Shown here: piece after piece, positions 26,761-50,220 of the stretch | Layout: each line of letters starts with the position of its first letter | Position numbering within the stretch: position 1 is the first letter of the stretch | Assembly: GCA_012719415.1 (NCBI GenBank) | Contig: JAAYAK010000320.1 | Span: 1-51,767 of the forward strand | Direction: 5' to 3' | Origin: Syntrophorhabdus sp. | GTDB taxonomy: Bacteria > Desulfobacterota > Syntrophorhabdia > Syntrophorhabdales > Syntrophorhabdaceae | DNA: 51,767 nucleotides | Translations under genes and position numbers: made by a program | Notes under the pieces: generated by a model | Databases searched by the model: none | The model's input: only the letters and a program-made list of their open reading frames with translations | What the model was told of the DNA's origin: nothing

Positions 26761-26782
26761 AATGATAATAGAAGGAGATGCA

Positions 26783-27874
26783 ATGCCAGAGATTCGTGTC
26801 GCCATAGCCGGCGTGGGGAACTGCGCGAGCTCGTTGGTACAGGGTATCATTTACTATTCCCGAAAGAGCGAGGATGCCATCGGGCTCATGCACAGCGATA
26901 TCTGCGGTTACGGACCGGGAGACATCCGGATCGTGGCGGCCTTCGACATCGACCGGCGGAAGGTGGGGACCCCTCTCGAGAAGGCCATCTTCGCACCCCC
27001 CAACTGCACGAAGACCATAGAGGCCGATATCCCGCCCACGGGTGTCACCGTCCTCATGGGTCACGTCCTCGACGGCGTGGCGCCTCACATGAAGCAGTAC
27101 CCGCCGGAGCGCTCCTTCGTTGTCGCAGACGAGGAGCCCGTCGATGTCGCAAAGGTCCTGAAGGAACGGAACGTCGACATTCTCCTTAACTACCTGCCTG
27201 TCGGTTCGGAACAGGCGGTGCGCCACTACGCCGAGTGCTGCCTCGAAAGCGGCGTCAGCCTTATCAACTGCATCCCCGTTTTCATTGCGTCAGACGACGA
27301 ATGGGCAAGACGTTTCGAAGAGAAGGGAATACCGCTCGTCGGGGACGACGTCAAGTCCCAGATCGGGGCGACGATCATCCACAGGACCCTGGCCAAGCTC
27401 TTCAACGACCGCGGGGTGAAGCTCGACAACACCTATCAGCTCAACACCGGCGGCAACACCGATTTTCTCAACATGCTCAACAGGGAGCGGTTGACGTCGA
27501 AGAAGATATCGAAGACGGAGGCCGTGCAGTCGACCCTCGATGTCCCCATCCCGGCGGAGAACATCCATATCGGCCCTTCGGACTACGTCCCCTGGCAGAA
27601 GGACAACAAGGTCTGCTTCATGAGGCTCGAAGGAAGGATATTCGGCGACATACCCATCAACTGCGAACTGAGGCTTTCCGTCGAGGATTCCCCGAACAGC
27701 GGGGGATGCATCATCGACGCGGTCCGGTGCTGCAAGGTGGCGCGGGACAGGGGTATCGGCGGAGTGCTGGAGTCCATCTCTGCCTACACCATGAAGCACC
27801 CCATCCGGCAGTACCCCGACGAGACGGCGCGGGTGATGGTGGAGGAGTTTATCAGGGGTGAAAGGGTCCGGTAG
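26783..27874 (+). CDS. ino1: Inositol-1-phosphate synthase
   Basis: The NAD-dependent enzyme that turns glucose-6-phosphate into 1L-myo-inositol-1-phosphate. The protein has 363 residues, the compact bacterial/archaeal form. The N-terminal NAD site is GVGNCASSLVQG near residues 9-20; conserved segments include GDDVKSQIGATI and LNTGGNTDFLNM near 219-230. The ATG at 26783 follows AAGGAGAT. The gene next door, a CDP-alcohol phosphatidyltransferase, points to an inositol phospholipid route. Such genes are best known from actinobacteria and archaea and are sporadic in Gram-negative anaerobes. Confidence 0.92.
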   Translation: MPEIRVAIAGVGNCASSLVQGIIYYSRKSEDAIGLMHSDICGYGPGDIRIVAAFDIDRRKVGTPLEKAIFAPPNCTKTIEADIPPTGVTVLMGHVLDGVAPHMKQYPPERSFVVADEEPVDVAKVLKERNVDILLNYLPVGSEQAVRHYAECCLESGVSLINCIPVFIASDDEWARRFEEKGIPLVGDDVKSQIGATIIHRTLAKLFNDRGVKLDNTYQLNTGGNTDFLNMLNRERLTSKKISKTEAVQSTLDVPIPAENIHIGPSDYVPWQKDNKVCFMRLEGRIFGDIPINCELRLSVEDSPNSGGCIIDAVRCCKVARDRGIGGVLESISAYTMKHPIRQYPDETARVMVEEFIRGERVR

Positions 27875-27885
27875 GGGGGCCTTGC

Positions 27886-28476
27886 GTGATAAGCTCTAAG
27901 ATCGGCCACCGCCTCGATCCCGTCATCCTTTCCCTGTACCGGGCCATCCTCGGACAGAGGACGATATCGCCCAACGTGATAAGCTCAGCGGGTACCCTCT
28001 TCGGTTTCCTGGCGGCAGCGCTCATCCTCATGGGATCTCCCGCGGCAGGTGCCGCCTCCCTCGTCGTGGCCGGTTTCTTCGATATCCTCGATGGCGCCAT
28101 GGCCCGCGGTACCGGCAGGGTGACGCGCTTCGGCGGCTTTTTCGACTCCGTCCTCGACAGGTACACCGACATGGCCGTCATGGGGGCCATTCTCTTCGTT
28201 TACGTCCGCCAGGGGAGCACGGGATACGCCATGGCCGCCTTCGTCGCGGTGATCGGCGCCGCGCTCATACCCTATGCCCGCGCGCGGGCGGAGGCCGCGG
28301 GTCTTTCCGGCAAAACAGGTCTCCTCGAGAGGCCCGAGAGACTCGTCCTTCTCATCATAGGCCTCTTCGTCCCTTTCCTCCTCAACTGGATCATCATCAT
28401 CCTCGCAGTCCTCACCCACGTGACGGTCATCCAAAGGATCGTGCATGTGTGGAGACAAACCAGAAAAACGGCTTGA
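27886..28476 (+). CDS. CDP-alcohol phosphatidyltransferase, probably phosphatidylinositol phosphate synthase
   Basis: A membrane enzyme that joins a CDP-linked donor to an alcohol. The whole family signature DG(x)2AR(x)8G(x)3D(x)3D is present at about residues 65-87. It has 196 residues and several hydrophobic helices. By its place 11 bases after the inositol-1-phosphate synthase gene, the alcohol is most likely inositol phosphate, which would make phosphatidylinositol phosphate. The alternatives are phosphatidylglycerophosphate synthase or a di-myo-inositol phosphate enzyme, though no CTP:inositol-phosphate transferase is seen. The GTG start is assumed; the stop lies at the edge of a repeat arm. 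Confidence 0.85.
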   Translation: MISSKIGHRLDPVILSLYRAILGQRTISPNVISSAGTLFGFLAAALILMGSPAAGAASLVVAGFFDILDGAMARGTGRVTRFGGFFDSVLDRYTDMAVMGAILFVYVRQGSTGYAMAAFVAVIGAALIPYARARAEAAGLSGKTGLLERPERLVLLIIGLFVPFLLNWIIIILAVLTHVTVIQRIVHVWRQTRKTA

Positions 28477-29797: not shown

Positions 29798-30142
29798 ATG
29801 AAGGACGGCAGAAAACAAGGCATTCTCCTCATAGCGATAGGGATCTGCATTCCCCTCTTCGCCCTGCCCTTTGTCTCCGGTTTCGATATGGATAAGGGGT
29901 TCATGGACAATTTCTACAACGCCGGTATCAGGATATCGAAAGGTGCCGTTCCCGCACCGCCCGACACCGCCGGCAAACCATCGGACGACACCCCGGGGAA
30001 GAGCCCCTTTTCTCCCGACAGGATGCGGATCGAGAAGATACCCTTCAGGTTCTTCCTGGTTCCCACGTTCATCCTCCTCTACATCGGGATCGTGATGATC
30101 GACAAGGCGAAGTCGAAGGCGAAACAGACCCGGGAGCCGTAG
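29798..30142 (+). CDS. Small membrane protein of unknown function
   Basis: A 114-residue protein I do not recognise. It has two hydrophobic segments, at about residues 8-27 and 85-102. The stretch between is polar and rich in proline and aspartate (about 50-80), and a basic tail follows. This predicts a two-helix membrane protein with a loop of about 55 residues outside or in the periplasm. It stands alone between the divergent ispG promoter and a 230-base gap before the decarboxylase genes. Its own extended -10 and codon use like its neighbours support it as a real gene. Confidence 0.6.
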   Translation: MKDGRKQGILLIAIGICIPLFALPFVSGFDMDKGFMDNFYNAGIRISKGAVPAPPDTAGKPSDDTPGKSPFSPDRMRIEKIPFRFFLVPTFILLYIGIVMIDKAKSKAKQTREP

Positions 30143-30523: not shown

Positions 30524-31666
30524 ATGTTTGCTGATTCGGTAATGAGCGGTTTGAATGGACTTACGGCTGGTTTCGCGAACCTGCACTGGTCGCATCCCGT
30601 GATGATGATCATCGGCGGGCTGTTGCTGTACCTCGGCATCAAGAAGGACTGTGAGCCTCTGCTCCTGGTTCCCATCGGATTCGGCTGTATCCTCATCAAT
30701 ATTCCCCTGGCGGGACTCATGGACAAAGAGGGATTCCTGCGCATCATCTACGACGCGGGTGTCATCACGGAACTCTTTCCCCTCTTCATATTCATCGGCA
30801 TAGGAGCCATGACGGACTTCGGGCCCGTTCTGGAAAACCCCTATACTTTCCTCCTGGGAGCGGCAGGCCAGTTCGGAATATTCATCACTCTCCTTCTCGC
30901 TCTCGCTCTCGGCTTTCCCTATAAGGATGCCGTGACCATCGGCATCATCGGCGCCTGTGACGGTCCCACCGTCATATATGTGGCCTCGCAGTACGCTCAA
31001 CACCTGCTGGGGCCCGTGACAGTCGCGGCCTATTCATACATGGCCCTCGTGCCGGTCCTTCAGCCCCCCATCATGAGGATGCTGACGACGCAGAAGGAAC
31101 GCACCACGGTCATGAAGAGCCACGCAAAAAGCGTCTCCAAGACGACGAAGATGCTCTTTCCCATCGTCATCACCATCGTTGGCGGTCTTATCGCCCCCAA
31201 GGGTCTCCCCCTTCTGGCGACGATCATGCTCGGCAATCTCATGAAGGAGTCGGGAGTCGTCAGCAGGTTGACGAGCGCGGCGGAGAACGAGATAGCCAAT
31301 ATCGTGACACTCCTCCTCGGCATATCCATCGGCGCCACCATGAGCGGGCCGGTCTTTGTGCAGCCCAAGACCCTCATCATCCTTATCCTCGGGCTTCTCG
31401 CCATATGCCTTGATACGGTTTTCGGCATCCTTTTTGGGAAAATCCTCTACGTTGTTACCGGAGGCAAGGTCAATCCGCTCATCGGCGCTTCGGGTATATC
31501 GGCCTTTCCCATGGCGGCCCGCGTCGCCCAGAAGGAAGGATTGAAGTATAACAAGAGAAATTATCTTCTCATGCACGCCATGGGAGCCAATGCCGGCGGG
31601 CAGGTCGGGTCGGTGATGGCGGCCGCCGTCATGCTCTCCGTCCTCAATGGAATGGGCCTCATCTAG
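30524..31666 (+). CDS. Sodium-ion-translocating decarboxylase, beta subunit
   Basis: The membrane subunit that couples decarboxylation of a carboxybiotin to sodium export. Family motifs are strong: GAMTDFGPVLENP, GACDGPTVIY with the key aspartate (Asp146), YSYMALVPVLQPPIM, and GASGISAFPMAARVAQK with LLMHAMGANAGGQVGS at the end. It has 380 residues and about ten helices. The substrate may be oxaloacetate, methylmalonyl-CoA or glutaconyl-CoA. The alpha (carboxyltransferase) and biotin-carrier subunits are not in this window, so they must be encoded elsewhere. A clear terminator follows. Confidence 0.93.
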   Translation: MFADSVMSGLNGLTAGFANLHWSHPVMMIIGGLLLYLGIKKDCEPLLLVPIGFGCILINIPLAGLMDKEGFLRIIYDAGVITELFPLFIFIGIGAMTDFGPVLENPYTFLLGAAGQFGIFITLLLALALGFPYKDAVTIGIIGACDGPTVIYVASQYAQHLLGPVTVAAYSYMALVPVLQPPIMRMLTTQKERTTVMKSHAKSVSKTTKMLFPIVITIVGGLIAPKGLPLLATIMLGNLMKESGVVSRLTSAAENEIANIVTLLLGISIGATMSGPVFVQPKTLIILILGLLAICLDTVFGILFGKILYVVTGGKVNPLIGASGISAFPMAARVAQKEGLKYNKRNYLLMHAMGANAGGQVGSVMAAAVMLSVLNGMGLI

Positions 31667-31951: not shown

Positions 31952-33283
31952 ATGGATTTTGTGCAGACTGCATCACTCGTGATCTTTCTGGCGAGCATCA
32001 TCCTCGTCATAACAGGCTGGATCGACAGCGTTCTGGCCGCGTTGCTGGGCATCCTCTTCATGGTCTTCTTCGGGATCATGTCGGACATCGATGCCTTCAA
32101 GATCGTTGACTGGAACGTTATCATCATTCTCCTGTCCATCTGGATCATCTCCGGGTACTTCGGGAAGTCGGGGGTGCCCGATTTCCTCTCGGCGGCTATC
32201 CTCAGGTTGTCGAGGGGGAATGTGGCCCTCTTTGTGACCATGATCGGTGCGCTGGCCGGATTCGTCTCCATGCTGATCGACAACGTGGTCGTCGTCCTCA
32301 TGTTCGCACCCGTCATCTTTCACGCCTGCCGGAGGTTCGGTTTCCCCGCCTTTGCGCCGGTGCTTTTCCTTGCCCTCTGTGCGAACTTCATGGGTACTGC
32401 AATGCTTCTTGGTGACCTGCCTCCCCAGATGCTCCACAGCGTCTCCGGCATCGAGTTCGCGGGTTTCATCTGGCAGCTGGGAAGGCCGTCCTCGTTATTT
32501 ATCCTTCTCATTTCGTATGCGGTTACTTGCTGGGTCTTCTACATGATGTTCAAGAAGAAATACAGAGGCATAACCATGGACGTGGCATCCATGAATGAAC
32601 GTCCTCTTGACCATATCAAGGACAAACCCTTTGCGATCACCGTGTGCGTCGTGTTCGCCCTCACGATCCTGGCCATGGCGCTAAGACCCATCTTCGGCTA
32701 TCATCTCGGTTTCATAGCCATGTGGGGGGCCATCTGTCTCATCCTCGTTTTCGAGATGTTCAAAGACCGGTTCACCCTGGAGATACCGAGCCTGGAGCAC
32801 GTCCTGTCTGAACTTGACTGGCGCGCCGTGTTCTTCTACGTGGCTCTCTTTGCCCTTGTCGGCGGTCTCGAGCATTCGGGCGTCATCAAGCTGGTGTCCA
32901 ACATGATAACCCCGCTCATCAAAGAGAGCCTTGTGGTGGGAAGCAGTCTCCTTTTCTGGGTCACTGCTCCTATCGTGGGTATTGTCGAGCATGACGCCTA
33001 TATTCTTACCATGCTCTACGTCATCCGTGACCTCGCGAAGGAGACGGGCATGAACCCCTGGCCCCTTTACTGGATGCTTCTGTGGGCCGGTACTCTCGGC
33101 AGCAACCTCACCATCGCCGGAGCGCCCGCGCTCTTCGTCGCGAAGAACCTTGGCGAGAAAGAGGACCAGGTGAAGGTGAAGCTCAAGGAGTTTCTCAGCA
33201 TGACCGTTCCCTTCGTGATAGTATCGCTCATTGCCTGCTATATCCCGGCCATGCTTATCTGGGTCTTCCCGTTCGCGAAATAG
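31952..33283 (+). CDS. ArsB/NhaD/SLC13-type membrane carrier
   Basis: A 443-residue carrier with about eleven helices, belonging to the ion-transporter superfamily that includes arsenite pump ArsB, Na+/H+ antiporter NhaD and dicarboxylate carriers. The two inverted re-entrant segments appear as SMLIDNVVVVLMFAPV with FMGTAMLLGDLPP in the first half, and EHDAYILTM with GTLGSNLTIAGAPALFVAK in the second. The substrate cannot be told. NhaD-like sodium-proton exchange would fit the sodium-related neighbours, but that is inference. The ribosome site is poor. It is followed after 11 bases by the kinase-like gene and shares its terminator. Confidence 0.8.
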   Translation: MDFVQTASLVIFLASIILVITGWIDSVLAALLGILFMVFFGIMSDIDAFKIVDWNVIIILLSIWIISGYFGKSGVPDFLSAAILRLSRGNVALFVTMIGALAGFVSMLIDNVVVVLMFAPVIFHACRRFGFPAFAPVLFLALCANFMGTAMLLGDLPPQMLHSVSGIEFAGFIWQLGRPSSLFILLISYAVTCWVFYMMFKKKYRGITMDVASMNERPLDHIKDKPFAITVCVVFALTILAMALRPIFGYHLGFIAMWGAICLILVFEMFKDRFTLEIPSLEHVLSELDWRAVFFYVALFALVGGLEHSGVIKLVSNMITPLIKESLVVGSSLLFWVTAPIVGIVEHDAYILTMLYVIRDLAKETGMNPWPLYWMLLWAGTLGSNLTIAGAPALFVAKNLGEKEDQVKVKLKEFLSMTVPFVIVSLIACYIPAMLIWVFPFAK

Positions 33284-34198: not shown

Positions 34199-34837
34199 TC
34201 ACGTCCCCTGTGCCGCCTCGCGGGCCAGGCGCTGGGATTTTATCTTCATGAGGGAGCTCGTCGTGGAGCGCTCCATTTCTTCAAGCTTCGACGTGATGAA
34301 GCGGATGGTCTCGGTCAGGCGGGGAATGAAGGAATGCTCGAGGGCGTTCACGCGCCGACGTGTCTTCTCCACTTCCTTGCTCAGCCGGCGGACCGTGTCC
34401 TCGGTCTCGGCCATGGAAAGGAGCTTCGGAAGGAACTCGCGGAGTTTCGCGATGGCCATGTCGAGTTCGGCCGACGTATGCACCAGGGAGTAGCGACCCG
34501 TGGCCTCCCCGTAAGCGATCTCCAGCTTCTGGACCCTGACGCTCATCAGCCGCGCGGGGCGGACCGTGAGCGCGAGGTCCTGCATGACCGATTCCAGCGC
34601 GTTCTCCGTGATGGAGCGTGACGAGGTGATCTCGGCAAGAACGAAGAGCTTCATGACGTAGGGGAGCTCCTCGTCGACGATCTGCCGCAGGTTGCGGTAC
34701 TCGCGGGCTATGGTCATGAATTCCTTTATCAGGCCGTCGAGCTTGTCCTTGAGGAGTTTGTGCCCCCGGCGGGCGACGACGAGCCGGCGCCTGAGTTTCA
34801 GAAGCTCCATTCGTGTCGGGTTAACGGCGAGTCTCAC
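34199..34837 (-). CDS. atpD: V/A-type ATPase subunit D
   Basis: Subunit D is the central shaft that turns inside the A3B3 head. The protein has 212 residues with the typical start LAVNPTRMELLKLRRRLVVARRGHKL and long coiled-coil helices at both ends. It is the last gene of the nine-gene operon H-I-K-E-C-F-A-B-D, the order usual for bacterial and archaeal enzymes of this type. Confidence 0.94.
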   Translation of the reverse strand: MRLAVNPTRMELLKLRRRLVVARRGHKLLKDKLDGLIKEFMTIAREYRNLRQIVDEELPYVMKLFVLAEITSSRSITENALESVMQDLALTVRPARLMSVRVQKLEIAYGEATGRYSLVHTSAELDMAIAKLREFLPKLLSMAETEDTVRRLSKEVEKTRRRVNALEHSFIPRLTETIRFITSKLEEMERSTTSSLMKIKSQRLAREAAQGT

Positions 34838-34852
34838 AGCAATCCTCCGGGA

Positions 34853-36238
34853 TCACGAGGTCTTCGGGTAGTAGCGTTCGATGAACTCATCGCGAACACG
34901 CTTCAAGAGGTTGGGCGGGAGCATGCCGAGAAGCTCCCAGCCGATGCGCAGGCTTTCCTCTATGGTCCGGTTCTCGTATTCGCCCTGGCGGACGAAGCGG
35001 TCCTCGAAGGCATCGGAGAATTTCACGAAAAGGACATCCTCTTCCGTCAGCGCCGATTCTCCGAGCACGACGGCGAGCTCCCTCGCGTTCTTTCCCTGGG
35101 CATAGGCCGCGTAGAGCTGGTTCATGACGTCCGAGTGGTCCTCCCGCGTCTTTCCGGCCCCGATGCCCTTGTCTTTGAGTCGCGAGAGGGACGGAAGGAC
35201 GTCGACGGGCGGATAGATGCCCTGGGTGTGGAGAGGGCGGAGGATGATGATCTGCCCCTCGGTGATGTAGCCCGTCAGGTCGGGGATGGGGTGTGTCTTG
35301 TCGTCCTCGGGCATGGTGAGGACGGGGATCTGTGTTATGGACCCGTTCTTCCCCTTGATGCGTCCCGCGCGTTCATAGATCGTCGAAAGGTCGGTGTAGA
35401 GGTAACCCGGGTAGCCGCGGCGTCCGGGGACTTCCTTCCGTGCCGCCGAGATCTCCCGGAGGGCCTCGCAATAGTTGGTTATGTCCGTCAGGATGACGAG
35501 GACGTGCATGTCCTTCTCAAAGGCGAGGAACTCCGCCGTCGTCAGTGCCATGCGGGGGAGGGTGAGCCTTTCGATGGGCGGGTCGTCGGCAAGGTTGATG
35601 AAGAGGACGGAACGCTCTATGGCGCCTGTCTTCCTGAAATCGGCTATGAAGAACTCCGCCTCCTCGAATGTTATGCCCATGGCGGCGAAGACGACGGCAA
35701 ACTTCTCACCCGTCTTGAGGACCGTTGCCTGTCTCGCGATCTGGGCGGCGATCCGGGAATGGGGCAGGCCCGAGCCGGAGAAGAGAGGCAGTTTCTGGCC
35801 CCTCACGAGGGTATTGAGAAGGTCGATTGTCGAAATGCCCGTCTGGATGAACTCATTCGGGTAGTCCCGGGCGTAAGGATTGATCTGGTTGCCGTTGACG
35901 TTGAGATACTTTTCGGGGATGATGGCGGGACCATCATCTATGGGCCGACCGGAGCCGTCGAAGACGCGGCCGAGCATGTCGATGGACATACCGAGCTCCA
36001 TCCCTTTGGCGAGGAACTTTACCTTCACGTCCTGCGGAGAGAGCCCCCGGGTTCCCTCGAAGACCTGGACCATCGCCTTGCTTCCGTGTACCTCCAGGAC
36101 CCGGCCCCTGCGGATGCTGCCGTCCTCCAGCTTTATGTCGGCAAGCTCTCCGTAGGTCACACCTTCCACGTCATCGACGAGCATGAGCGGCCCGGCGATC
36201 TCCTTCACTGTCCTGTACTCCCGAATGATGTTTCCCAT
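34853..36238 (-). CDS. atpB: V/A-type ATPase subunit B
   Basis: The non-catalytic nucleotide-binding-like subunit of the A3B3 head. It has 461 residues. The family start [20 protein letters not shown] is present, and the site of the P-loop reads GSGLPHSR rather than a Walker A, as expected for B. The C-terminal ELGMLPP-like region ends with REEF-type helices. It lies 24 bases after subunit A and 15 before D. Confidence 0.96.
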
Positions 36239-38376: not shown

Positions 38377-39373
38377 AGACATACCTCAACCGCGGACCCA
38401 GGATATCCTCGTTTATCCTGTTGATCTTTCCCGTGACGACGAGCTTGAGGTTCTGGATCTCGGCCTCAAGCGCCATGAGGAAGGCGAAGACCCGTTCGGG
38501 TCCCGACGTTTCGAGGCGCGCGAAGGCGGAGAGGTGAAGGACGAAATTAGTTACCTTCAGCTCGAATGTGGAGATCTGGTCGTCGTAGGGCATCTGCAGT
38601 GCGCGGGCCAGCACGTCCCCGATCTCGCCTCCCACCAGCTCCGGCCACATGGCAGGGTCCGGCGCGCCCGCCAGGTCCATGATGAGGGGGTTTTCCTCTC
38701 CCACGGGCAGGAAAAGATCGATGACCTGTTTCAGGTCGCGACCCTGTCTCTGCACGCGCCACAGGGAGGAAACGGCATGCCCCAGGACGCTTTCCTGAAC
38801 GCAGGAGCGGATGAGGGGACTGTCGATCTCGTCGGCCAGCATGAGCAGGTGGCGGAGGTATGCCCCGTCGACGAACATGTCGGACATGGATTCATCGAGC
38901 TCGCCGAGGTCTATTCCCGCGCCGGTGATCCGGTCCCTGAAAGGGGCGGGCAGGTCAGCATAATCTCCATCGAGAACGGCGCCTATTACCTGTTCCCTGA
39001 CCATGCCCGGCAGGAAACGGCTGTCTATGCCGGAAAGGGCGCTCTTTATGTTGAGATAGTCGTTTCGTATGAGGAAGAGGTCAACGGGAACGGGTGAAGG
39101 GCACTCGGCCCTGACCGATGTGGCGAGGTCGTAGAAGCATTCGTCGGCAATGGCGCTGAAATCATCCCAGGGGACGCCGGGATCGAGATAGTCCTCGATC
39201 AGTGTTCCCTGAAGGTGCTGGTACACGTCTTCCGTATGATGCATCTCTATGACGAGGGTGAAGAACTCCCTGGGCAAGAGCTTCGTTTCAAGCGCGCTGA
39301 TCCTGCCGCAGACGAAACCCCAGTCAGGTCGGTTCTTGATGAAAGGCAACATGTAGCCGGCAGACAGTCTCAT
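38369..39373 (-). CDS. atpC: V/A-type ATPase subunit C
   Basis: Subunit C (AC39/d-type) is the funnel that joins the central shaft to the rotating K ring. It has 334 residues, all helical by appearance. Features include YLNIKSALSGID near the middle and EIQNLKLVVTGKINRI near the end, which is the recurring helical repeat of the family. The ATG overlaps the subunit E stop by four bases. It is less conserved than A or B, but the operon position makes the call firm. Confidence 0.92.
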   Translation of the reverse strand: MRLSAGYMLPFIKNRPDWGFVCGRISALETKLLPREFFTLVIEMHHTEDVYQHLQGTLIEDYLDPGVPWDDFSAIADECFYDLATSVRAECPSPVPVDLFLIRNDYLNIKSALSGIDSRFLPGMVREQVIGAVLDGDYADLPAPFRDRITGAGIDLGELDESMSDMFVDGAYLRHLLMLADEIDSPLIRSCVQESVLGHAVSSLWRVQRQGRDLKQVIDLFLPVGEENPLIMDLAGAPDPAMWPELVGGEIGDVLARALQMPYDDQISTFELKVTNFVLHLSAFARLETSGPERVFAFLMALEAEIQNLKLVVTGKINRINEDILGPRLRYVYG

Positions 39374-39957
39374 TCGCGTGCAAGGTCCTCAGCGATCTCA
39401 GGCAGGATCGATCTCTCTATATCCTGAAATATGGTGCCTATCGTTGCGTCCACCTCAAAGTCATCGCTTATGAAGATGAATCCGCCCCTTTCCGGGAGCG
39501 GGTCCCGGTCGATCTCGATCGCCGTTCTCTCACCACCCTCTGACGCCATGCCGTCCAGAAGTTTTGAGAATACCTCCCTGTCATCGGGGTGGACCCGTAT
39601 CCGCCCTTTCCCGCCGTGGACGATCTTTTCGAGGAAACCTTCCATCACCCGTCCATACTCATCGGCGGGCCAGGCGAGAACCGTCTCGCGGGCCCTGTCG
39701 AAGATGGCCCGCAGGGAGGCGTTTCTCGCTTCGAGGTACTCTTTTCCGGCAGTTCCCTGGAAGTGGGCCAGTTTTCGGGCATACTCTTCCTCGATGAGAC
39801 GGGAACGGGCCTCATACTGGTACTCGAATTCCCGACGCAGGTTCTCCTTCTGGATATCCAGCTTCTCTTTCGCCTGTCTCGCGGCGGCGGCATTGATGTG
39901 TTCCGCCTCTGTCCTTGATGCCTTCAATACCGCTTCTTTGATCTTGTCAAGACTCAT
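39370..39957 (-). CDS. atpE: V/A-type ATPase subunit E
   Basis: One chain of the peripheral stalk. It has 195 residues: a charged N-terminal coiled coil (about 1-95, rich in Ala, Glu, Arg and Lys) and a globular C-terminal domain that binds the head, with GGFIFISDDFEVDATI near the end, a sequence pattern typical of E. It pairs with the H subunit encoded at 42621. It overlaps subunit C by four bases. Confidence 0.9.
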   Translation of the reverse strand: MSLDKIKEAVLKASRTEAEHINAAAARQAKEKLDIQKENLRREFEYQYEARSRLIEEEYARKLAHFQGTAGKEYLEARNASLRAIFDRARETVLAWPADEYGRVMEGFLEKIVHGGKGRIRVHPDDREVFSKLLDGMASEGGERTAIEIDRDPLPERGGFIFISDDFEVDATIGTIFQDIERSILPEIAEDLARE

Positions 39958-39982: not shown

Positions 39983-40498
39983 CTACTGTGGCAAGAGCTG
40001 CAGCACAGAGGGTTGCGTGAGGAAGATTATGAAGAGGATCGTCGCAAGGAGGGCCACGACGGCGTAGGTCTCGACGAAGGCGGGGAAGAGGATGGCCCGC
40101 CCCGCTGATTCCGGTCGTCTCGCGATGAGCGCGATCCCGGCGGCCGATGCCTCTCCCTGCTTTATGGAAGAGACGAGCTGGGCGATCCCGTTACCGAGGC
40201 CGATGAAGAAAAGAGCGAGGCCCGTCCCGAGGGATATCTTGAGGTTTCCCCCCCCGATGAGTCCCGTCTGGGTCATGATGAGGATGGCGGCGATAAAGCC
40301 GTAGAATCCCTGCGTGCCCGGCAAGGCGATCATGATGAGCATGCGCCCGAAAAGCTCCGGTTTCTCGCGCATCACTCCCGCTCCGGCATGGGAGGCGATG
40401 GCGATCCCGCAGGCCGAACCGGCGCCCGCCAGGCCAAAGGTGAGGCCCGCCCCCGCGTAGCAAAGACCGCGACCAATCTCGATCCATTCTGGGGTCAT
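39983..40498 (-). CDS. atpK: V/A-type ATPase ring subunit K, sodium-binding type
   Basis: The membrane ring subunit. At 171 residues it is the duplicated four-helix form. The first hairpin has LPGTQGFYGF and the second has FVETYAV. Aligned from memory with Enterococcus hirae NtpK, the residues that bind sodium are kept: Thr62, Gln63, Gln114 and Glu143, with Leu59 giving a backbone oxygen. The first hairpin has Gln where a proton carrier could sit, so there is one carboxylate per protomer. This predicts a Na+-coupled enzyme. It lies between genes for I and E. Confidence 0.93.
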   Translation of the reverse strand: MTPEWIEIGRGLCYAGAGLTFGLAGAGSACGIAIASHAGAGVMREKPELFGRMLIMIALPGTQGFYGFIAAILIMTQTGLIGGGNLKISLGTGLALFFIGLGNGIAQLVSSIKQGEASAAGIALIARRPESAGRAILFPAFVETYAVVALLATILFIIFLTQPSVLQLLPQ

Positions 40499-40525: not shown

Positions 40526-42616
40526 TTATCCATTTTTTGTGCCCTCCTTTTTCATCTCGCACAGCGGCGAGTCGAACCCGAGGGGCTGGAAGGGCCGCGC
40601 CCCCGCGTCATAGAAGCGCCCGAAGAACTCGACGAATATGAGGCGCATCGAGTGGACGAAGGCGCCCAGTAGACTGATGACGAAGTTGAAAAGATGGCCC
40701 GCGACGACGATGAAGATGAAACAGAAGAGTCCCACGTAGGGAATGTCCCTCAAGAGCCCGCCGAGCATGTTGAAGGTCGTGCCCACGATCGACGTGGTGA
40801 GACCGAGGGCAAGCAGCCGGCAATAGGAGAGGACGTCGCCGATGAAGGCGGTGATCCCGTAGCTTCCCACGATCCCGTAGAGGCTGACGACCCCGCCCAG
40901 GATGCGGGCGACAGGGCCCTTCATGTCCCGTCCCTGCGTCAGGATGAGCCCGAGCGCCCCGGCGCCGAACAGCGCGAGACCGGTCCGGTAAAGGGTCTGG
41001 GGAGTATCGATGAAAAGCTTGCTGACGATTATGAGCAGGCCAGGGAGTGTCAGGTACCAGAAGAGACCGTCAAAGACGGCACTCTTCCAGTCTCCCTTCC
41101 TGATCGCCCCGTACATTCTGAGGGCGATCCCGAAGAACTGGTTCAGGACGCCGATCAAAAGGGCAAAGAGCAGGGCGTAGATCGTCTTGCTTATGGGGTC
41201 GAGAACCACGAAAAAGGCCTGGACTCGCATGAGGAGATTGTTCTCGCCGAGATACTTCTCCATGTAGAGGTCGCCGAACCAGGACCCCAGCAGGGCCCCG
41301 AAGATGACGGTGCTTATGCCGCCGCCAAGAAGGATGCGGCCGAAGTCCGCCACGCCCTGGTATTGCTTTGTTCTCTTTATCAGGTAAAGGGAAGTGGCGA
41401 TGAGCATAAGGCCGTATCCCACATCGGAAAAGCATATGCCAAAGAAGAGATAGAAGTTTATGTGCAAATAGGGTGTCGGGTCGAAGCTGCGATACGGCGG
41501 CAGACCGAACATCTCCACCAGCAGTGAGAGAGGCCGGAAGACCTTCGGGAGGGAGAGGCTCACCGGCACGTTCTCGTCCTCGGAAGGATCGTCGAGGATG
41601 ACCACGGAGTCGGGAAACTCTTTGGCGAAGGCGCTCTGCAGGCGTTCCACATCCCGGGCCCGTATGTACCCGGTGAGGAGATGGACCCATTTTCCACCGA
41701 GTGTCTTCGTCAGTGCCAGGCGCTCGTTCCTTGCGGCGGTCCAGAATGCCTTGAGGATGATGAGGGAGCGCCTGTCGGAGGCAAGCGCCCTGACCCTGGC
41801 GATGGTCTCATCGATCGTTGTGGAAAGCTGGACGAGGTCCTCCTCAAGAGCCCTGACGTGGTCTCCTATCGTGCCGGAGAGGTCGGGAAGGCCCGTTTCT
41901 ATAAAGGAAAGCCGGGACAGCTCATCCTTCACCTCGTCCGCGTCGTCAGCAAGGACAGCGATGAGTACCCTGACGTTGTCCCTGTTCGCTGTCTTCTGCC
42001 CGCCCGGGGCGGGTGTGAACCCGGAGGGATAGACGCCGCAGGTGTCGGACCCTTCCTCGATCGGTTCCCACGCGATATCGGTTAAGGGGGATGCCGGTCC
42101 CGAGAGATGCTCCAGGTTCTTGCGGGGCAGATGACCGAACAGGAGACGGACCCGGCGGGGACGGTGAAAGTCTTCCATTGTGAACGACAGGTCGCACAGG
42201 GGCATCAACGTTGCCAGGCGGTTCTCGATATCGCCCTTTGCGCGTTCGCTGCGCCTGAGTATCTCGTCGAGCTCATTTGCCTCACGGGAGCGGCCAGCGA
42301 GGTCGTAGTTCTCCGTCGCGTTCTTGAGCTCCTGTTTATCGATCATCTGGGGGACTGGCGTCAGGCCCTGAAAGAACCCCTGTTCCTCAGGCGCGTATGT
42401 CTTGAGGAGGTTCAGTATGGCGTCGATCTTGTGCAGTATGTCATCAATGTCTTCTGTGGAGACACCTTTGATCCTCAGGTCGGGGGCCGTGTCCGTGAGA
42501 CCTTCGGAGGCGTCGGTGACGTCAACGACGCCAAGGGAGCTGACGGTGCGCAGAAGGCGCTTGCTGCTGTGCATGGGGCTCAGGATCGTCAGCTTCTTAA
42601 TGGGGTCTATCGCCAT
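40526..42616 (-). CDS. atpI: V/A-type ATPase subunit I
   Basis: Subunit I (a-type) is the stator that forms the ion path beside the K ring. It has 696 residues: a soluble N-terminal half of about 370 residues and a membrane half with about eight helices. The essential region near the end, including ALGLTTSIVGTTFNMLGG and GHLFNFVISLLGAFVHSMRL, is typical; a key arginine is found in the last helices. I chose the ATG at 42616 (MAIDPIKKLTILSP), four bases after the H stop; the open frame upstream overlaps H and is not real. Confidence 0.95.
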   Translation of the reverse strand: MAIDPIKKLTILSPMHSSKRLLRTVSSLGVVDVTDASEGLTDTAPDLRIKGVSTEDIDDILHKIDAILNLLKTYAPEEQGFFQGLTPVPQMIDKQELKNATENYDLAGRSREANELDEILRRSERAKGDIENRLATLMPLCDLSFTMEDFHRPRRVRLLFGHLPRKNLEHLSGPASPLTDIAWEPIEEGSDTCGVYPSGFTPAPGGQKTANRDNVRVLIAVLADDADEVKDELSRLSFIETGLPDLSGTIGDHVRALEEDLVQLSTTIDETIARVRALASDRRSLIILKAFWTAARNERLALTKTLGGKWVHLLTGYIRARDVERLQSAFAKEFPDSVVILDDPSEDENVPVSLSLPKVFRPLSLLVEMFGLPPYRSFDPTPYLHINFYLFFGICFSDVGYGLMLIATSLYLIKRTKQYQGVADFGRILLGGGISTVIFGALLGSWFGDLYMEKYLGENNLLMRVQAFFVVLDPISKTIYALLFALLIGVLNQFFGIALRMYGAIRKGDWKSAVFDGLFWYLTLPGLLIIVSKLFIDTPQTLYRTGLALFGAGALGLILTQGRDMKGPVARILGGVVSLYGIVGSYGITAFIGDVLSYCRLLALGLTTSIVGTTFNMLGGLLRDIPYVGLFCFIFIVVAGHLFNFVISLLGAFVHSMRLIFVEFFGRFYDAGARPFQPLGFDSPLCEMKKEGTKNG

Positions 42617-42620
42617 TCGT

Positions 42621-42932
42621 TTACCAGTTGTGGAACCTGTCCAGTATCCTGTTGACCCCGCGGGTAGAGAACTCTTCGGGCGCTTCCCTGACCGCCCGGA
42701 GTTTTTCGGCGTGCTGCGCGGAAGCCCGGGAGAGGGATTCTGCAAATCCTTTCTCCACCTCAGTCTTGAACTGAGCAAGGCGGGCCTCGAGCTCGGCAGT
42801 AAGCTCCTCGCGGTACCTGGCGAGCTCGTCATCTACCGATGCGAGGACCGCTTTGGACCCGGTGTGGGCAGCCTCGATGATGCCGTCCGCCTCCTGTTCC
42901 AGCGATATTATGTTGTCAAGCAGGGATGTCAT
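42621..42932 (-). CDS. V/A-type ATPase peripheral stalk subunit H/G
   Basis: A 103-residue coiled-coil protein rich in Glu, Ala and Arg, the second chain of the peripheral stalk (called H or G). The sequence match is weak, as usual for this subunit, but place and shape fit: it is the first gene of the operon, directly before subunit I. I chose the ATG at 42932 with GAAGGA ahead of it over the ATG at 42953, which starts within that ribosome site. Confidence 0.8.
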   Translation of the reverse strand: MTSLLDNIISLEQEADGIIEAAHTGSKAVLASVDDELARYREELTAELEARLAQFKTEVEKGFAESLSRASAQHAEKLRAVREAPEEFSTRGVNRILDRFHNW

Positions 42933-43018
42933 ATCGTCGTTCCTTCTCGTCATTCGAAAGGTTATGCGATATCAACCGAAAGACAGGTCCGGCTGGATGA
43001 ATAAGCAATTGAGCACTA

Positions 43019-45263: not shown

Positions 45264-47102
45264 TTACATTTCGACGCGCGTGATCACGCCGTGGAGTTTG
45301 TTCAAAGGGAGGTCGTGGAACTGGATGAAGGGCGGGGTCAGCCTCTTTAAGATCGCGAACACCTTCCACAGGGGCCTGTCCGTCGCTATCTCTTCAAGAC
45401 CGTAAAAGATGACCTTTTCATTGATCCCCGCCTCCTTCATGATCTCTTCGATCTTGACGACCTCCATGTATCCCATTTCTATCCGGAACGCTTCAAGCCC
45501 GTCAGCCAGCGCATCCTGGAACGAGCTCTGCACGCCGAAGGGCTGATCGAGGGTCTTTATGGAGACGATGACGTTCGTTTCGTAGATGATGTGGTTCCGG
45601 AACATGGTGTGGACAATATAAGGAGGTATCATCTGCGGGTCACGGGCAAAGTAGAGGGCGGTCCCACGGATCTTGTTGAGCTCGCGGTAGACCTGGTTGT
45701 AGCTCTCCAGGAACACGTCAAGCGGCAGGGGCCGTATCCGGCGGTAGAGCCTGCGCTGGCCCGCCGTGTACACGAGCATGACCAAAAGAGGAATGAGGGC
45801 GATGATGATGGACCAGTACCCGCCATGGGGTATCTTATAGGTGTTGGAAATGAGAAATGCAAGGTCGACGAGCGTCACCAGGATGGCGACGGTCATCTTG
45901 AACCATTCCCGGCGCAGGTGGAATATTGCCGTCATCATGATCCCCGTCAGCGCCATGGTACCCGTGACGGCGAGGCCGTAAGCGGCGGCCAGGCGGTGCG
46001 ACTCGCGGAACTCGACCATTATGAAGAGGACCGAGAGAAGGAGGAACCAGTTGACGAAACCGATGTATATCTGCGACCGCAGCCTGGGCGAGGTGTATTC
46101 CACCTTGAACATGGGAAGGAGCCGGGTGTTGATACCCTGGTAGACTATGGAGAACATGCCGCTTATCATGGCCTGTGACGCGATGACCGTGGCGATGATG
46201 CTGAGGATAAGGAAGGGCACATACAGGACAACGGACTGACTGAGGATCATCCCGAAGAGCGCGTTCGATGTGCCGCCATGATGCGTGAGGATGAACGAAC
46301 CCTGCCCGAGGTAGCTCAGGGCCAGGGCAAAAAAGACGAAATACCATGCGCGTATGATGGGTTTGCGGCCGAGGTGCCCCATGTCCGCGTACAACGCCTC
46401 GCCCCCTGTCGCGCAGAGGATGACCTCCGAGAGGACGAAGAAACCGGCAATACCCTCGTGCCAGAGAAATCTGGCGGCGTACCAAGGGTTCAGGGCCTTG
46501 AGGACCGAGGGGGTGTGTATGATGGACAGGATACCGGACAGCGAAAGCGCGAGGAACCAGATCACCATGAGGGGGCCGAAGGCCCCGGCCACCCTGTCCG
46601 TACCCTTTTTCTGGAAGGCGAAGAGTATGATGGCAATGATGCCGGCAATCGCTATGAGTGTCGTCTGCCGTGTTCCGCTGAAACCCGGTATGAGGAGTAT
46701 GCCCTCGACGGCGCTCAGGATGCTGATGGCGGGAGTTATCACGCCATCTCCGGCGAGGAGGGATACGCCGATGAAGGTGATGACGGTGACGAAGACCATG
46801 GAACGGGTCTTTTTCAGAAGGCGCACGAGCATTCCCCTGAGGACGAACGCGCCGCCTTCACCTTTCTCGCCGAGGCTCATGGCCAGCCACGCGTATTCGA
46901 TGGTCACAAGGACCGTCATTGTCCAGAGGATAAGTGAAAGGACCCCGATGACATTCGCCTCCGTGGGCTTCATCAGGAGGAATATGATCGTGATGGTGTA
47001 TATGGGACTCGTCCCGATGTCCCCGAAGACGAGTCCCAGGGATCGTACGATCTCTTTGATGCCGGAATCCTTGCTTTTTGTCGTCGGGGAGGTGGTTTCC
47101 AT
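45264..47102 (-). CDS. kup: Potassium transporter Kup
   Basis: A proton-coupled K+ importer of the KUP/HAK/KT family. It has 612 residues: about twelve membrane helices up to residue 430 and a soluble tail. The family signature SLGLVFGDIGTSPIYTI near 17-33 is intact, and GGxxAL-type segments (GGEALYADMGHLG near 244) follow. The start ATG has a promoter 36 bases upstream. It lies 110 bases upstream of ktrBA, which gives two unlike K+ systems in a row, perhaps for different pH or K+ levels. Confidence 0.95.
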   Translation of the reverse strand: METTSPTTKSKDSGIKEIVRSLGLVFGDIGTSPIYTITIIFLLMKPTEANVIGVLSLILWTMTVLVTIEYAWLAMSLGEKGEGGAFVLRGMLVRLLKKTRSMVFVTVITFIGVSLLAGDGVITPAISILSAVEGILLIPGFSGTRQTTLIAIAGIIAIILFAFQKKGTDRVAGAFGPLMVIWFLALSLSGILSIIHTPSVLKALNPWYAARFLWHEGIAGFFVLSEVILCATGGEALYADMGHLGRKPIIRAWYFVFFALALSYLGQGSFILTHHGGTSNALFGMILSQSVVLYVPFLILSIIATVIASQAMISGMFSIVYQGINTRLLPMFKVEYTSPRLRSQIYIGFVNWFLLLSVLFIMVEFRESHRLAAAYGLAVTGTMALTGIMMTAIFHLRREWFKMTVAILVTLVDLAFLISNTYKIPHGGYWSIIIALIPLLVMLVYTAGQRRLYRRIRPLPLDVFLESYNQVYRELNKIRGTALYFARDPQMIPPYIVHTMFRNHIIYETNVIVSIKTLDQPFGVQSSFQDALADGLEAFRIEMGYMEVVKIEEIMKEAGINEKVIFYGLEEIATDRPLWKVFAILKRLTPPFIQFHDLPLNKLHGVITRVEM

Positions 47103-48196: not shown

Positions 48197-48270
48197 CGAA
48201 ACAGCGATCATGCTGTCTGGTGGGGATATGGCAGGGTAGCCTGTTGCCCGACAGAAGGAGGACACAACAC

Positions 48271-50220
48271 ATGTACACTGAGTACTGGGGCCTGAAAAAG
48301 CCGCCATTCGACAATGTGCCGGACCCGTCGATGTATGTTGATTCTCATCTCTCAGTGGAAAACACTGTCGCAGAGACGCTCTTCGCGATCGAGGAAGGAA
48401 ACGAGTGTCTCACGGTGATCGTCGGCGACGTGGGGCTTGGCAAGACGTTGTCGTTGCGCCTCATCCTCGACTCGCTCGACCAGAGCAAGTACAAGATAGC
48501 CTTTGTCACGAACCCCGATATGTCCTTCGTGCAGATACTCCGCGAGATCATAGGTCAGTTGACCGGCAAGGAGTGCGAGATCCGTGGAAAGACGGAACTC
48601 CTCGAGGTGTTCAACAAGCTTCTCTTTGAAACGGCCGATGAGGGAAAGAAGGTCCTTGTCTTCATCGACGAGGCCAATGCCATATCACCGACAAATCTCG
48701 AGAGCCTGCGGCTTCTCACGAACATGCAGGACGATACGAGAAATCTCTTCACCATAGTCCTTGCAGGCCAGATGGAGCTTGCAAAGAGGCTCGAGCACCC
48801 GAAGAGGGCGAACCTGTTCCAGCGTATCGGCACGTACAACAGGATCGAAAAGATGGACAGCGAGGAGCTTGTCAGGAACTATGTCGACTCCCGTCTGAAA
48901 ATGGCGGGCGCCCCGAGGCAGATCTTCACGGATGACGCCGTCCGACGGCTCTACCAGTACTCTGAGAACGGGGTGCCCCGTCTCATCAACAAGATAGCGA
49001 AGCTGTGCCTGAAGGCGGGAGAGACGAACAACTTCGACGTCATCACCGGGGACATTGTTCAGCAGATCGGCCAGCGCTTCCTGAAGATGACAGGTCCCGC
49101 CGTGCAGAAGAAGAGCGTGAAGGAGCGGCCCGTGAGAAAAGCAAAGGCAGCCGAGCCGCCTGCAATGCAGGCCCCGGCCGTCGATGTGCCGCCGCTTGAG
49201 AAACCCGTGATGGCACCGCCTCCTCCACCACCACCTCCTCCTCCAGCGGAAAAACCCGTGATGGCAGCACCTCCACCTCCCCCACCAGTACCAGAGAGGC
49301 CCGTGATGGCACCTCCACCACCTCCACCTCCACCTCCACCTCCACCGCCTCCACCTCCACCGCCTCCACCTCCACCGCCGGTACCGGAGAAGCCCGTGAT
49401 GGCGCCGCCTCCTCCACCGCCTCCACCTCCTCCTCCAGCGGAAAAGTCCGTGATGGCAGCACCTCCGCCTCCTCTGCCGGTAGAGGAAGAGACGCCGCCT
49501 CCGCCGGCGACGCCGGCTCCAACGGGGCAGTTCTTTGCCGGTCCCGCCATGCAGGGACAGGAGGCTGCGGCAGGAAGATCGGAGGTAGCGCCTGAAGTGG
49601 TGGAAGAGTTGCCCGCGCCTCCCCCCGTTATCACTCCCGCGGAAGAGAAGGAGCCGGTGCTCGAAGCCGCCCCCGAGGGAGCCGGGCTGGCAGAAGAGGA
49701 GCAACTGGAGTTCGGAGAAGAGGCCGGAGCTGTTGCCGAAGAGGTCGTGTCGGGGCCCGAGATGAAGCCTGAGGAGGTATTCAGGCCTGTTGAGGTGAAA
49801 GAAGAGGCTCCACCTGCGCCGCCACCTCCGACAGAGAGGCCCGTGATGGCACCACCGCCACCGCCACCGCCACCAACGGAGAGGCCCGTGATGGCGCCAC
49901 CGCCACCGCCACCGCCACCTCCTGCACCTCAAGAGTCGCCGGAGGCATATGCCGGGGCATCCGCGGAGGGTGTGGAGGAGCAGGCGGAGACAGAGCCCGA
50001 TGTGGCGGTCATCGCCGGATGCAGGATCAGAATAGAGATCCCTCCTCACATCGCGGAACAGACGGTGGGGGCCGGTGTCGATCAGAAGAGAAAGGTGGCG
50101 GGCGTTCTGGCCGCACAGACATTGGAAAAGAACCCCCAGCTCACGGCCTCGCCAACCGTCGACCCCGTCTCCATCTGGAGCGAGATATTGACGGTTATCA
50201 TGAAGAGGCTGGAAGCATAA
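48271..50220 (+). CDS. ExeA/GspA-like AAA ATPase with polyproline repeats
   Basis: A 649-residue protein. Residues 1-270 are an ATPase of the ExeA/GspA/TniB kind: YWGLKKPPFDNVPDP at the start, Walker A GDVGLGKT (52-59), Walker B VLVFIDEAN (129-137), and a C-terminal lid with NGVPRLINKIAKLCL. Residues 308-416 and 513-555 hold seven copies of an E[KR]xVMA box, each followed by a proline run; the longest run has 23 prolines (49312-49380). Between lies an acidic linker. The last 75 residues (AVIAGCRIRIEIPP on) look folded but are unknown to me. No membrane helix is seen, unlike ExeA. The ATG follows AGAAGGAGG. Translation must depend on EF-P. Its role is unknown; envelope assembly or polar scaffolding are possible. 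Confidence 0.82.
   Translation: MYTEYWGLKKPPFDNVPDPSMYVDSHLSVENTVAETLFAIEEGNECLTVIVGDVGLGKTLSLRLILDSLDQSKYKIAFVTNPDMSFVQILREIIGQLTGKECEIRGKTELLEVFNKLLFETADEGKKVLVFIDEANAISPTNLESLRLLTNMQDDTRNLFTIVLAGQMELAKRLEHPKRANLFQRIGTYNRIEKMDSEELVRNYVDSRLKMAGAPRQIFTDDAVRRLYQYSENGVPRLINKIAKLCLKAGETNNFDVITGDIVQQIGQRFLKMTGPAVQKKSVKERPVRKAKAAEPPAMQAPAVDVPPLEKPVMAPPPPPPPPPPAEKPVMAAPPPPPPVPERPVMAPPPPPPPPPPPPPPPPPPPPPPPVPEKPVMAPPPPPPPPPPPAEKSVMAAPPPPLPVEEETPPPPATPAPTGQFFAGPAMQGQEAAAGRSEVAPEVVEELPAPPPVITPAEEKEPVLEAAPEGAGLAEEEQLEFGEEAGAVAEEVVSGPEMKPEEVFRPVEVKEEAPPAPPPPTERPVMAPPPPPPPPTERPVMAPPPPPPPPPAPQESPEAYAGASAEGVEEQAETEPDVAVIAGCRIRIEIPPHIAEQTVGAGVDQKRKVAGVLAAQTLEKNPQLTASPTVDPVSIWSEILTVIMKRLEA
49195..49470 (+). 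repeat. Polyproline-coding minisatellite
   Basis: Within the ATPase gene, near-perfect repeats of cctcca/ccaccg codons and of the box coding for VMA. The use of cct, cca and ccg in a 6-base rhythm shows growth by slippage. A second, smaller block lies at 49810-49930 with ccaccg rhythm. Such arrays are prone to length change between strains and to assembly collapse. Confidence 0.85.

What the first reader, a model, noticed from the sequence alone, without database searches (positions are those of the whole stretch)
39983..40498. Ring subunit K predicts a sodium-coupled V/A-type ATPase
Thr62, Gln63, Gln114 and Glu143 match the sodium ligands of the Enterococcus hirae K ring, and the first hairpin has glutamine instead of a carboxylate. 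This sets one Na+ per four-helix protomer. It would allow the cell to spend ATP to pump Na+ or to make ATP from a sodium gradient.
Basis: partly seen in the sequence, partly recalled or inferred. Interest (0 to 1): 0.55.

Follow-up and report, generated by a model that had tools for sequence, protein, structure and literature searches.

The report
Sodium-type rotary ATPase in a syntroph
A syntrophic bacterium carries a membrane rotor that almost certainly turns with sodium instead of protons; such rotors are common in bacteria, but here the genes sit next to a sodium-pump gene, which suggests the cell may turn a decarboxylation into ATP.

Summary
Window 39983-40498 (minus strand) encodes a 171-residue, four-helix V/A-ATPase K subunit. 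Leu59, Thr62, Gln63, Tyr66, Gln114 and Glu143 match the E. hirae NtpK sodium pocket (L61, T64, Q65, Y68, Q110, E139) without a gap in any helix. The feared register shift is rejected: Gln114 is invariant in 81 of 81 rows, while the alternative Gln107 is variable. One detail is wrong: Gly61, not Gln63, takes the carboxylate's place in hairpin 1. The gene lies in a complete operon in a Syntrophorhabdus-like genome that also encodes an F-type ATPase and a second V/A-type ATPase; both of their rings lack part of the sodium motif, so the genome holds its own proton-type controls. The only OadB/GcdB-type sodium-pump gene of the genome lies 2.5 kb beyond the operon, and this pairing recurs in the genus. 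GcdA, a biotin carrier and a glutaryl-CoA dehydrogenase are elsewhere in the genome, so a glutaconyl-CoA-driven sodium cycle is plausible. Sodium coupling is well supported by sequence, not measured; the direction (ATP synthesis or pumping) is open. Sodium-type K rings are common in print, so this is a new member of a known kind.

The parts
39983..40498 (-). K subunit (ntpK/atpK), four-helix proteolipid; Thr62 40313-40315, Gln63 40310-40312, Gln114 40157-40159, Glu143 40070-40072
   Evidence: codon positions
40526..42664 (-). I (a) subunit; the 768-aa frame is over-extended, likely start at MAIDPIKK inside it; Arg600 and Arg658 (counted from there) align with R573 and R629 of E. hirae NtpI
   Evidence: arginine names from PMC10382590 passages
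42621..42953 (-). small coiled-coil subunit at the head of the operon, probably the stalk G/H subunit (position and composition only; no telling family hit of its own)
39370..39957 (-). E subunit
   Evidence: Pfam PF01991
38369..39373 (-). C subunit
   Evidence: Pfam PF01992
38032..38382 (-). F subunit
   Evidence: Pfam PF01990
36263..38035 (-). A subunit (catalytic)
   Evidence: NF003220 861 bits over cut-off 470
34853..36238 (-). B subunit
   Evidence: NF003235 779.1 bits over cut-off 349
34199..34837 (-). D subunit
   Evidence: Pfam PF01813
43119..43763 (-). TrkA/KtrA-like nucleotide-binding subunit of potassium uptake
   Evidence: PF02254, PF02080
43773..45152 (-). TrkH/KtrB-family potassium transporter (kin of E. 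hirae NtpJ by recall)
   Evidence: TIGR00933 332.9 bits over 331.15
45264..47102 (-). Kup potassium transporter
   Evidence: TIGR00794 405 bits, under its cut-off 539.6
30524..31666 (+). beta subunit of a sodium-pumping decarboxylase (OadB/GcdB family), the only one found in the genome
   Evidence: TIGR01109 418.2 bits over 190.6; genome scan; 6iva chain E 1.3e-97
31952..33283 (+). ion-transporter-superfamily membrane protein (CitMHS/DASS/MamN/ArsB-like), substrate unassigned, between oadB and the operon in this genus

Best explanation
The K subunit builds the rotor ring of a sodium-coupled V/A-type ATPase of the E. hirae type. Each four-helix protomer binds one Na+ at Glu143 with Gln114, Thr62, Gln63 and the Leu59 carbonyl, Tyr66 steadying the glutamate; hairpin 1 has glycine (Gly61) where a second carboxylate would be. 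Shown here: residues, register, fold, operon, and two other rings without the full motif in the same genome. Inferred: Na+ binding and transport. Further inferred, and less sure (about even odds): in this syntroph the enzyme works together with a biotin-dependent glutaconyl-CoA decarboxylase (GcdB in the window, GcdA and a biotin carrier on other contigs), using the Na+ gradient that decarboxylation makes to form ATP, while the other two rotary ATPases run on protons.
For: Ungapped helix-by-helix match of six pocket residues with NtpK (pocket named in PMC10382590 passages, and PMC2359735 passages). Q114 81 of 81, Q107 variable. AlphaFold2 model mean pLDDT 94.9 with helix 3 running through 90-127 without a break; nearest solved structure 2bl2_A, Foldseek TM 0.82/0.89, rmsd 2.5, VIA Z 21.7 over 154 residues at rmsd 2.1 (proton-type yeast and plant c subunits follow at Z 19.6 and 19.5, so fold alone does not tell Na+ from H+). 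NF005124 132.6 bits over cut-off 127. Rule of PMC2359735: the position of Gln65/Thr67 is polar in Na+ rings and aliphatic in H+ rings; here Q63, but Leu in the F-type c (ESL) and Leu in the single-hairpin V/A K (EGL, which also has Val at the Gln110 position) of the same genome. oadB 2.5 kb from the operon: same order in 6 of 10 genus genomes with this K, a different oadB in a 7th, 3 not testable because of contig ends. GcdA on C78 (1pix, E 7e-224), free biotin carrier with AMKM directly after a glutaryl-CoA dehydrogenase of the Desulfococcus type on C49.
Against: No Na+ binding, transport or activity was measured. PMC3692424 (passages) calls the E. hirae ring itself only weakly ion-selective, so H+ could be carried where Na+ is scarce. 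The oadB neighbour is absent in 8 of 8 stretches from other genera of the family that keep the same ATPase, so the pairing is not obligatory. trkA/trkH are missing in 2 of 8 genus stretches that hold the operon. A ring with one ion per four helices gives few ions per ATP, which suits pumping. GcdA, carrier and GcdB lie on three contigs of a draft bin with 3.9% estimated contamination.
Confidence: 0.85

Rival explanations
1. Sodium-coupled, but chiefly an ATP-driven Na+ pump for ion balance, as in E. hirae: it keeps cell Na+ low and drives Na+-linked K+ uptake by the TrkA/TrkH genes next to it.
For: trkA, trkH and kup directly upstream; E. hirae has a KtrB-type gene in its operon (recall); ring with one ion per four helices; the genome has two other, proton-type rotary ATPases that could make ATP.
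Against: trkA/trkH absent in G007 and G009; a primary Na+ exporter (GcdB) is already encoded beside it, which would make a second exporter partly redundant.
Confidence: 0.42
2. The ring carries protons in the natural, often low-salt habitat in spite of the complete motif.
For: PMC3692424 passages: E. hirae ring nearly unselective in intrinsic terms; PMC2359735 passages: Na+ enzymes can move protons when Na+ is absent.
Against: The same passages in PMC3692424 say the E. [quoted passage not shown] Q114, the one free test, is kept in 81 of 81 rows.
Confidence: 0.08
3. Register artefact: Gln107 (in GIAQ) is the true counterpart of Gln110, Gln114 being two turns off.
For: Local similarity of GLGNGIAQ to a stretch of NtpK; the window protein is six residues longer between hairpins.
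Against: phmmer places the gap in the loop; 107 variable, 114 invariant; unbroken helix 90-127 in a confident model.
Confidence: 0.01

Closest known systems
Enterococcus hirae V-type Na+-ATPase (NtpK, PDB 2bl2)
   Same: All six pocket residues, four-helix K, one carboxylate, similar operon order (E. hirae order by recall), a TrkH/KtrB-family gene beside it
   Different: K about a third identical (34-36%), six residues longer between the hairpins, Glu116 where the NtpK row has lysine after the Gln-Gly; host is a syntroph with a sodium-type decarboxylase gene beside the operon
Na+-specific A-type ATPases of ProAD (PMC11738941)
   Same: Complete motif by the same criterion; [quoted passage not shown]
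   Different: The listing of this genus there was not seen
Fusobacterium nucleatum glutaconyl-CoA decarboxylase plus Na+ F-type ATP synthase (PMC3692424)
   Same: Proposed logic: decarboxylation makes the Na+ gradient, a rotary enzyme makes ATP (passages)
   Different: There the rotor is F-type with a two-carboxylate motif; here V/A-type, with two further proton-type rotary ATPases in the genome

Membership tests
V/A-type ATPase K subunit (NF005124 / PF00137) | score above the curated cut-off | tested here: met
   132.6 bits over 127; PF00137 88.3 over 24, two stretches
NtpK-type Na+ ring | complete ligand set L61, T64, Q65, Q110, E139 and Y68 | tested here: met
NtpK-type Na+ ring | four-helix protomer with a single carboxylate, none at the equivalent place in hairpin 1 | tested here: met
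   Gly61 opposite Glu143; model with two hairpins
NtpK-type Na+ ring | binds and transports Na+ | not testable with these tools
   needs biochemistry
V/A-ATPase complex | complete set A, B, C, D, E, F, I, K plus second stalk subunit | tested here: met
   the G/H subunit is assigned by place only
V/A-ATPase a (I) subunit | two arginines facing the ring (R573, R629 of NtpI) | tested here: met
   both aligned with arginine
Na+-translocating biotin-dependent decarboxylase (OadB/GcdB) | beta subunit above TIGR01109 cut-off | tested here: met
   418.2 over 190.6
glutaconyl-CoA decarboxylase (whole enzyme) | GcdA, GcdB, biotin carrier GcdC and small GcdD | tested here: inconclusive
   GcdA, GcdB, a 71-aa biotin carrier without the AP-rich linker; no GcdD identified; subunit list from PMC7145394 passages

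The most novel reading that the evidence does not exclude
A genus-level ion island in Syntrophorhabdus couples glutaconyl-CoA decarboxylation to ATP synthesis through a V/A-type, not F-type, sodium rotary enzyme, run in parallel with two proton-type rotary ATPases. The pairing of a sodium decarboxylase beta gene with a sodium-type V-ATPase at this spot was kept although the decarboxylase gene was swapped in one relative (G002) and the ATPase in another (G004).
Probability: 0.35. Interest if true: 0.55.

Novelty: new member of a known kind. Interest (0 to 1): 0.33.

Why it matters
Syntrophs live near the lowest energy yield known for growth. If a decarboxylase-made sodium gradient is harvested by a V/A-type enzyme while protons serve two others, the cell keeps two ion circuits apart, which can be tested with sodium and proton uncouplers in coculture. 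The ring itself is ordinary.

Tried and rejected
Register shift (Gln107 for Gln110): rejected. Gln63 as the replaced carboxylate: rejected, Gly61 holds that place. Rnf or Nqr as source of the Na+ gradient: PF03116 found in 0 of 25 genomes of the family examined, own genome included. Membrane pyrophosphatase: one copy on C78; the nearest solved chain is a K+-insensitive proton pump while the best NCBIfam model is named sodium-translocating, so its ion is left open. Pairing with oadB in the whole family: not found in 8 of 8 stretches of other genera. A vertical origin within the phylum is not favoured: in a quick 78-row A-subunit tree the family's clade (support 97) joins Hydrogenedentota (99), apart from two other genomes of the phylum, G058 and G075 (the second G000 enzyme, L061, is a long branch, and G004's A was left out before building; not repeated with the careful method). 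Fold search: proton-type c subunits score nearly as well as NtpK, so the fold does not settle the ion.

Literature: searches over the held library listed no paper whose title or shown abstract describes this operon or its link with GcdB in Syntrophorhabdus; the Syntrophorhabdus aromaticivorans genome paper (10.1111/1462-2920.12444) and the Syntrophus aciditrophicus genome paper (PMC1863511) are not held, and either may mention it, so absence from print is not claimed.

Full report
What is there. The finding's frame is real, on the minus strand at 39983-40498. It is a two-stretch ATP-synt_C protein above the NCBIfam cut-off for V-type K subunits. It sits in an operon, all on the minus strand, that reads small stalk subunit, I, K, E, C, F, A, B, D, preceded by TrkA-like, TrkH-family and Kup potassium genes.

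The organism. The window is contig C320 of an unnamed 3.7-Mb draft genome, 99.2% complete, 3.9% contamination.

The sodium site. phmmer aligns the protein with NtpK (2bl2) at E 9.5e-21, with its only gap in the loop between helices 2 and 3. All six pocket residues listed by PMC10382590 (passages) match: L59, T62, Q63, Y66, Q114, E143. In an alignment of the window and 80 loci, T62, Q63, Y66, Q114 and E143 are 81 of 81 and L59 80 of 81. The loci were picked with two patterns that contain L59, T62, Q63, Y66 and E143, so of these only Q114 is a free test. Residue 107, the only candidate for a shifted register, is variable. The proton-type mammalian c subunit has Ile-Ile opposite T62-Q63 in its first hairpin and Val-Leu in its second (read from the alignment).

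The model. AlphaFold2 with 42 sequences gave mean pLDDT 94.9 and helices 3-45, 47-78, 90-127, 129-135 and 137-160. NtpK is the best solved match by both aligners.

Controls within the genome. PF00137 finds three ring genes in G000: this K; an F-type c on C209 with the a subunit beside it, its F1 genes on C210 (alpha by the atpA model, the others by order and by reading the translations); and a 109-aa single-hairpin K on C241 in a second V/A operon (the contig ends after B, so D was not seen). Aligned together, the F-type c keeps Gln and Glu-Ser but has Leu where Na+ rings are polar; the C241 K has Val for the glutamine and Gly-Leu after the glutamate. By the rule in PMC2359735 (passages) both are proton-type. 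Of 28 family genomes examined by both (G000-G027), 15 have the window's K type (E at most 1e-78), 19 the single-hairpin type, 11 both.

The neighbourhood. A full-length sodium-pump decarboxylase beta subunit lies at 30524-31666, the only PF03977 match in the genome; the DGPT and MGxN...GS stretches are kept in the alignment with Salmonella OadB (that these hold Na+ or catalytic residues is recall). Between it and the operon are an ion-transporter-superfamily gene and a kinase-like gene. In the genus, the order oadB, transporter, kinase, V-ATPase, kup recurs in G005, G007, G008, G009 and G011. G002 has a different oadB (48%) and a TRAP transporter there (TRAP by reading the translations). G004 keeps oadB, transporter, kinase and kup but has another V-ATPase between them (A 42%), whose K also carries T-Q, Q and E. 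G010's contig ends inside ntpA; G001 and G006 lie on contigs of 3.1 and 6.7 kb; G003 has an oadB (51%) and no such ATPase in the stretch. In 8 of 8 stretches from other genera of the family no oadB is near. So the pairing is a trait of the genus.

The rest of the decarboxylase. C78 encodes a GcdA (1pix, E 7e-224), with matches in 25 of 26 other family genomes asked, several of them fragments at contig ends. C49 has a glutaryl-CoA dehydrogenase nearest to 3mpi (E 9.3e-103; NF045552 419 bits, under its cut-off 470) followed at once by a 71-aa biotin carrier. Clostridium symbiosum Gcd has GcdA, B, C and D (PMC7145394, abstract and passages); no GcdD was identified here.

How it most likely works. 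Na+ enters a half-channel of the I subunit, binds at Glu143 of a protomer, rides round with the ring, and leaves on the other side past the I-subunit arginines (R600, R658, aligned with R573 and R629 of NtpI); rotation couples to A/B catalysis. This follows the established E. hirae mechanism and is inferred here. Direction is open. I lean slightly to ATP synthesis from the decarboxylase-made gradient, because a primary Na+ exporter is encoded beside it and the two other rotary ATPases look proton-type.

Novelty. [quoted passage not shown] The ring is therefore a new member of a known kind. What may be new is the genus-level island linking a V/A-type Na+ enzyme with GcdB in a syntroph; the key genome paper could not be read.

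Noticed in passing
L033 1363-1692, L061 (G000:C241): Second V/A-type ATPase operon in the same genome with a single-hairpin K lacking the sodium glutamine; found in 19 of 45 genomes searched.
   Followed up: yes
L055 1613-2125 (G004:C62), also L056-L059: A different V-ATPase with a TQG...YQG...PETY K subunit, in G004 at the same place between the kinase gene and kup; likely also sodium-type.
   Followed up: partly
window 29798-30142 +: 114-aa protein with a hydrophobic helix at each end and a Pro/Ala-rich middle upstream of oadB, conserved with it in the genus; no NCBIfam hit. Could be an accessory part of the decarboxylase.
   Followed up: no
window 48220-50220 +: ExeA-like ATPase frame with long proline runs alternating with KPVMAPPP/RPVMAPPP repeats (name from reading the translation).
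   Followed up: no
A-subunit tree: The family's V-ATPase A subunits group with Candidatus Hydrogenedentota and not with two other genomes of the phylum, which hints at transfer.
   Followed up: partly
window 26762-28476 +: An inositol-phosphate-synthase-like and a CDP-alcohol phosphatidyltransferase-like frame side by side, suggesting inositol phospholipid synthesis (names from reading the translation, not searched).
   Followed up: no
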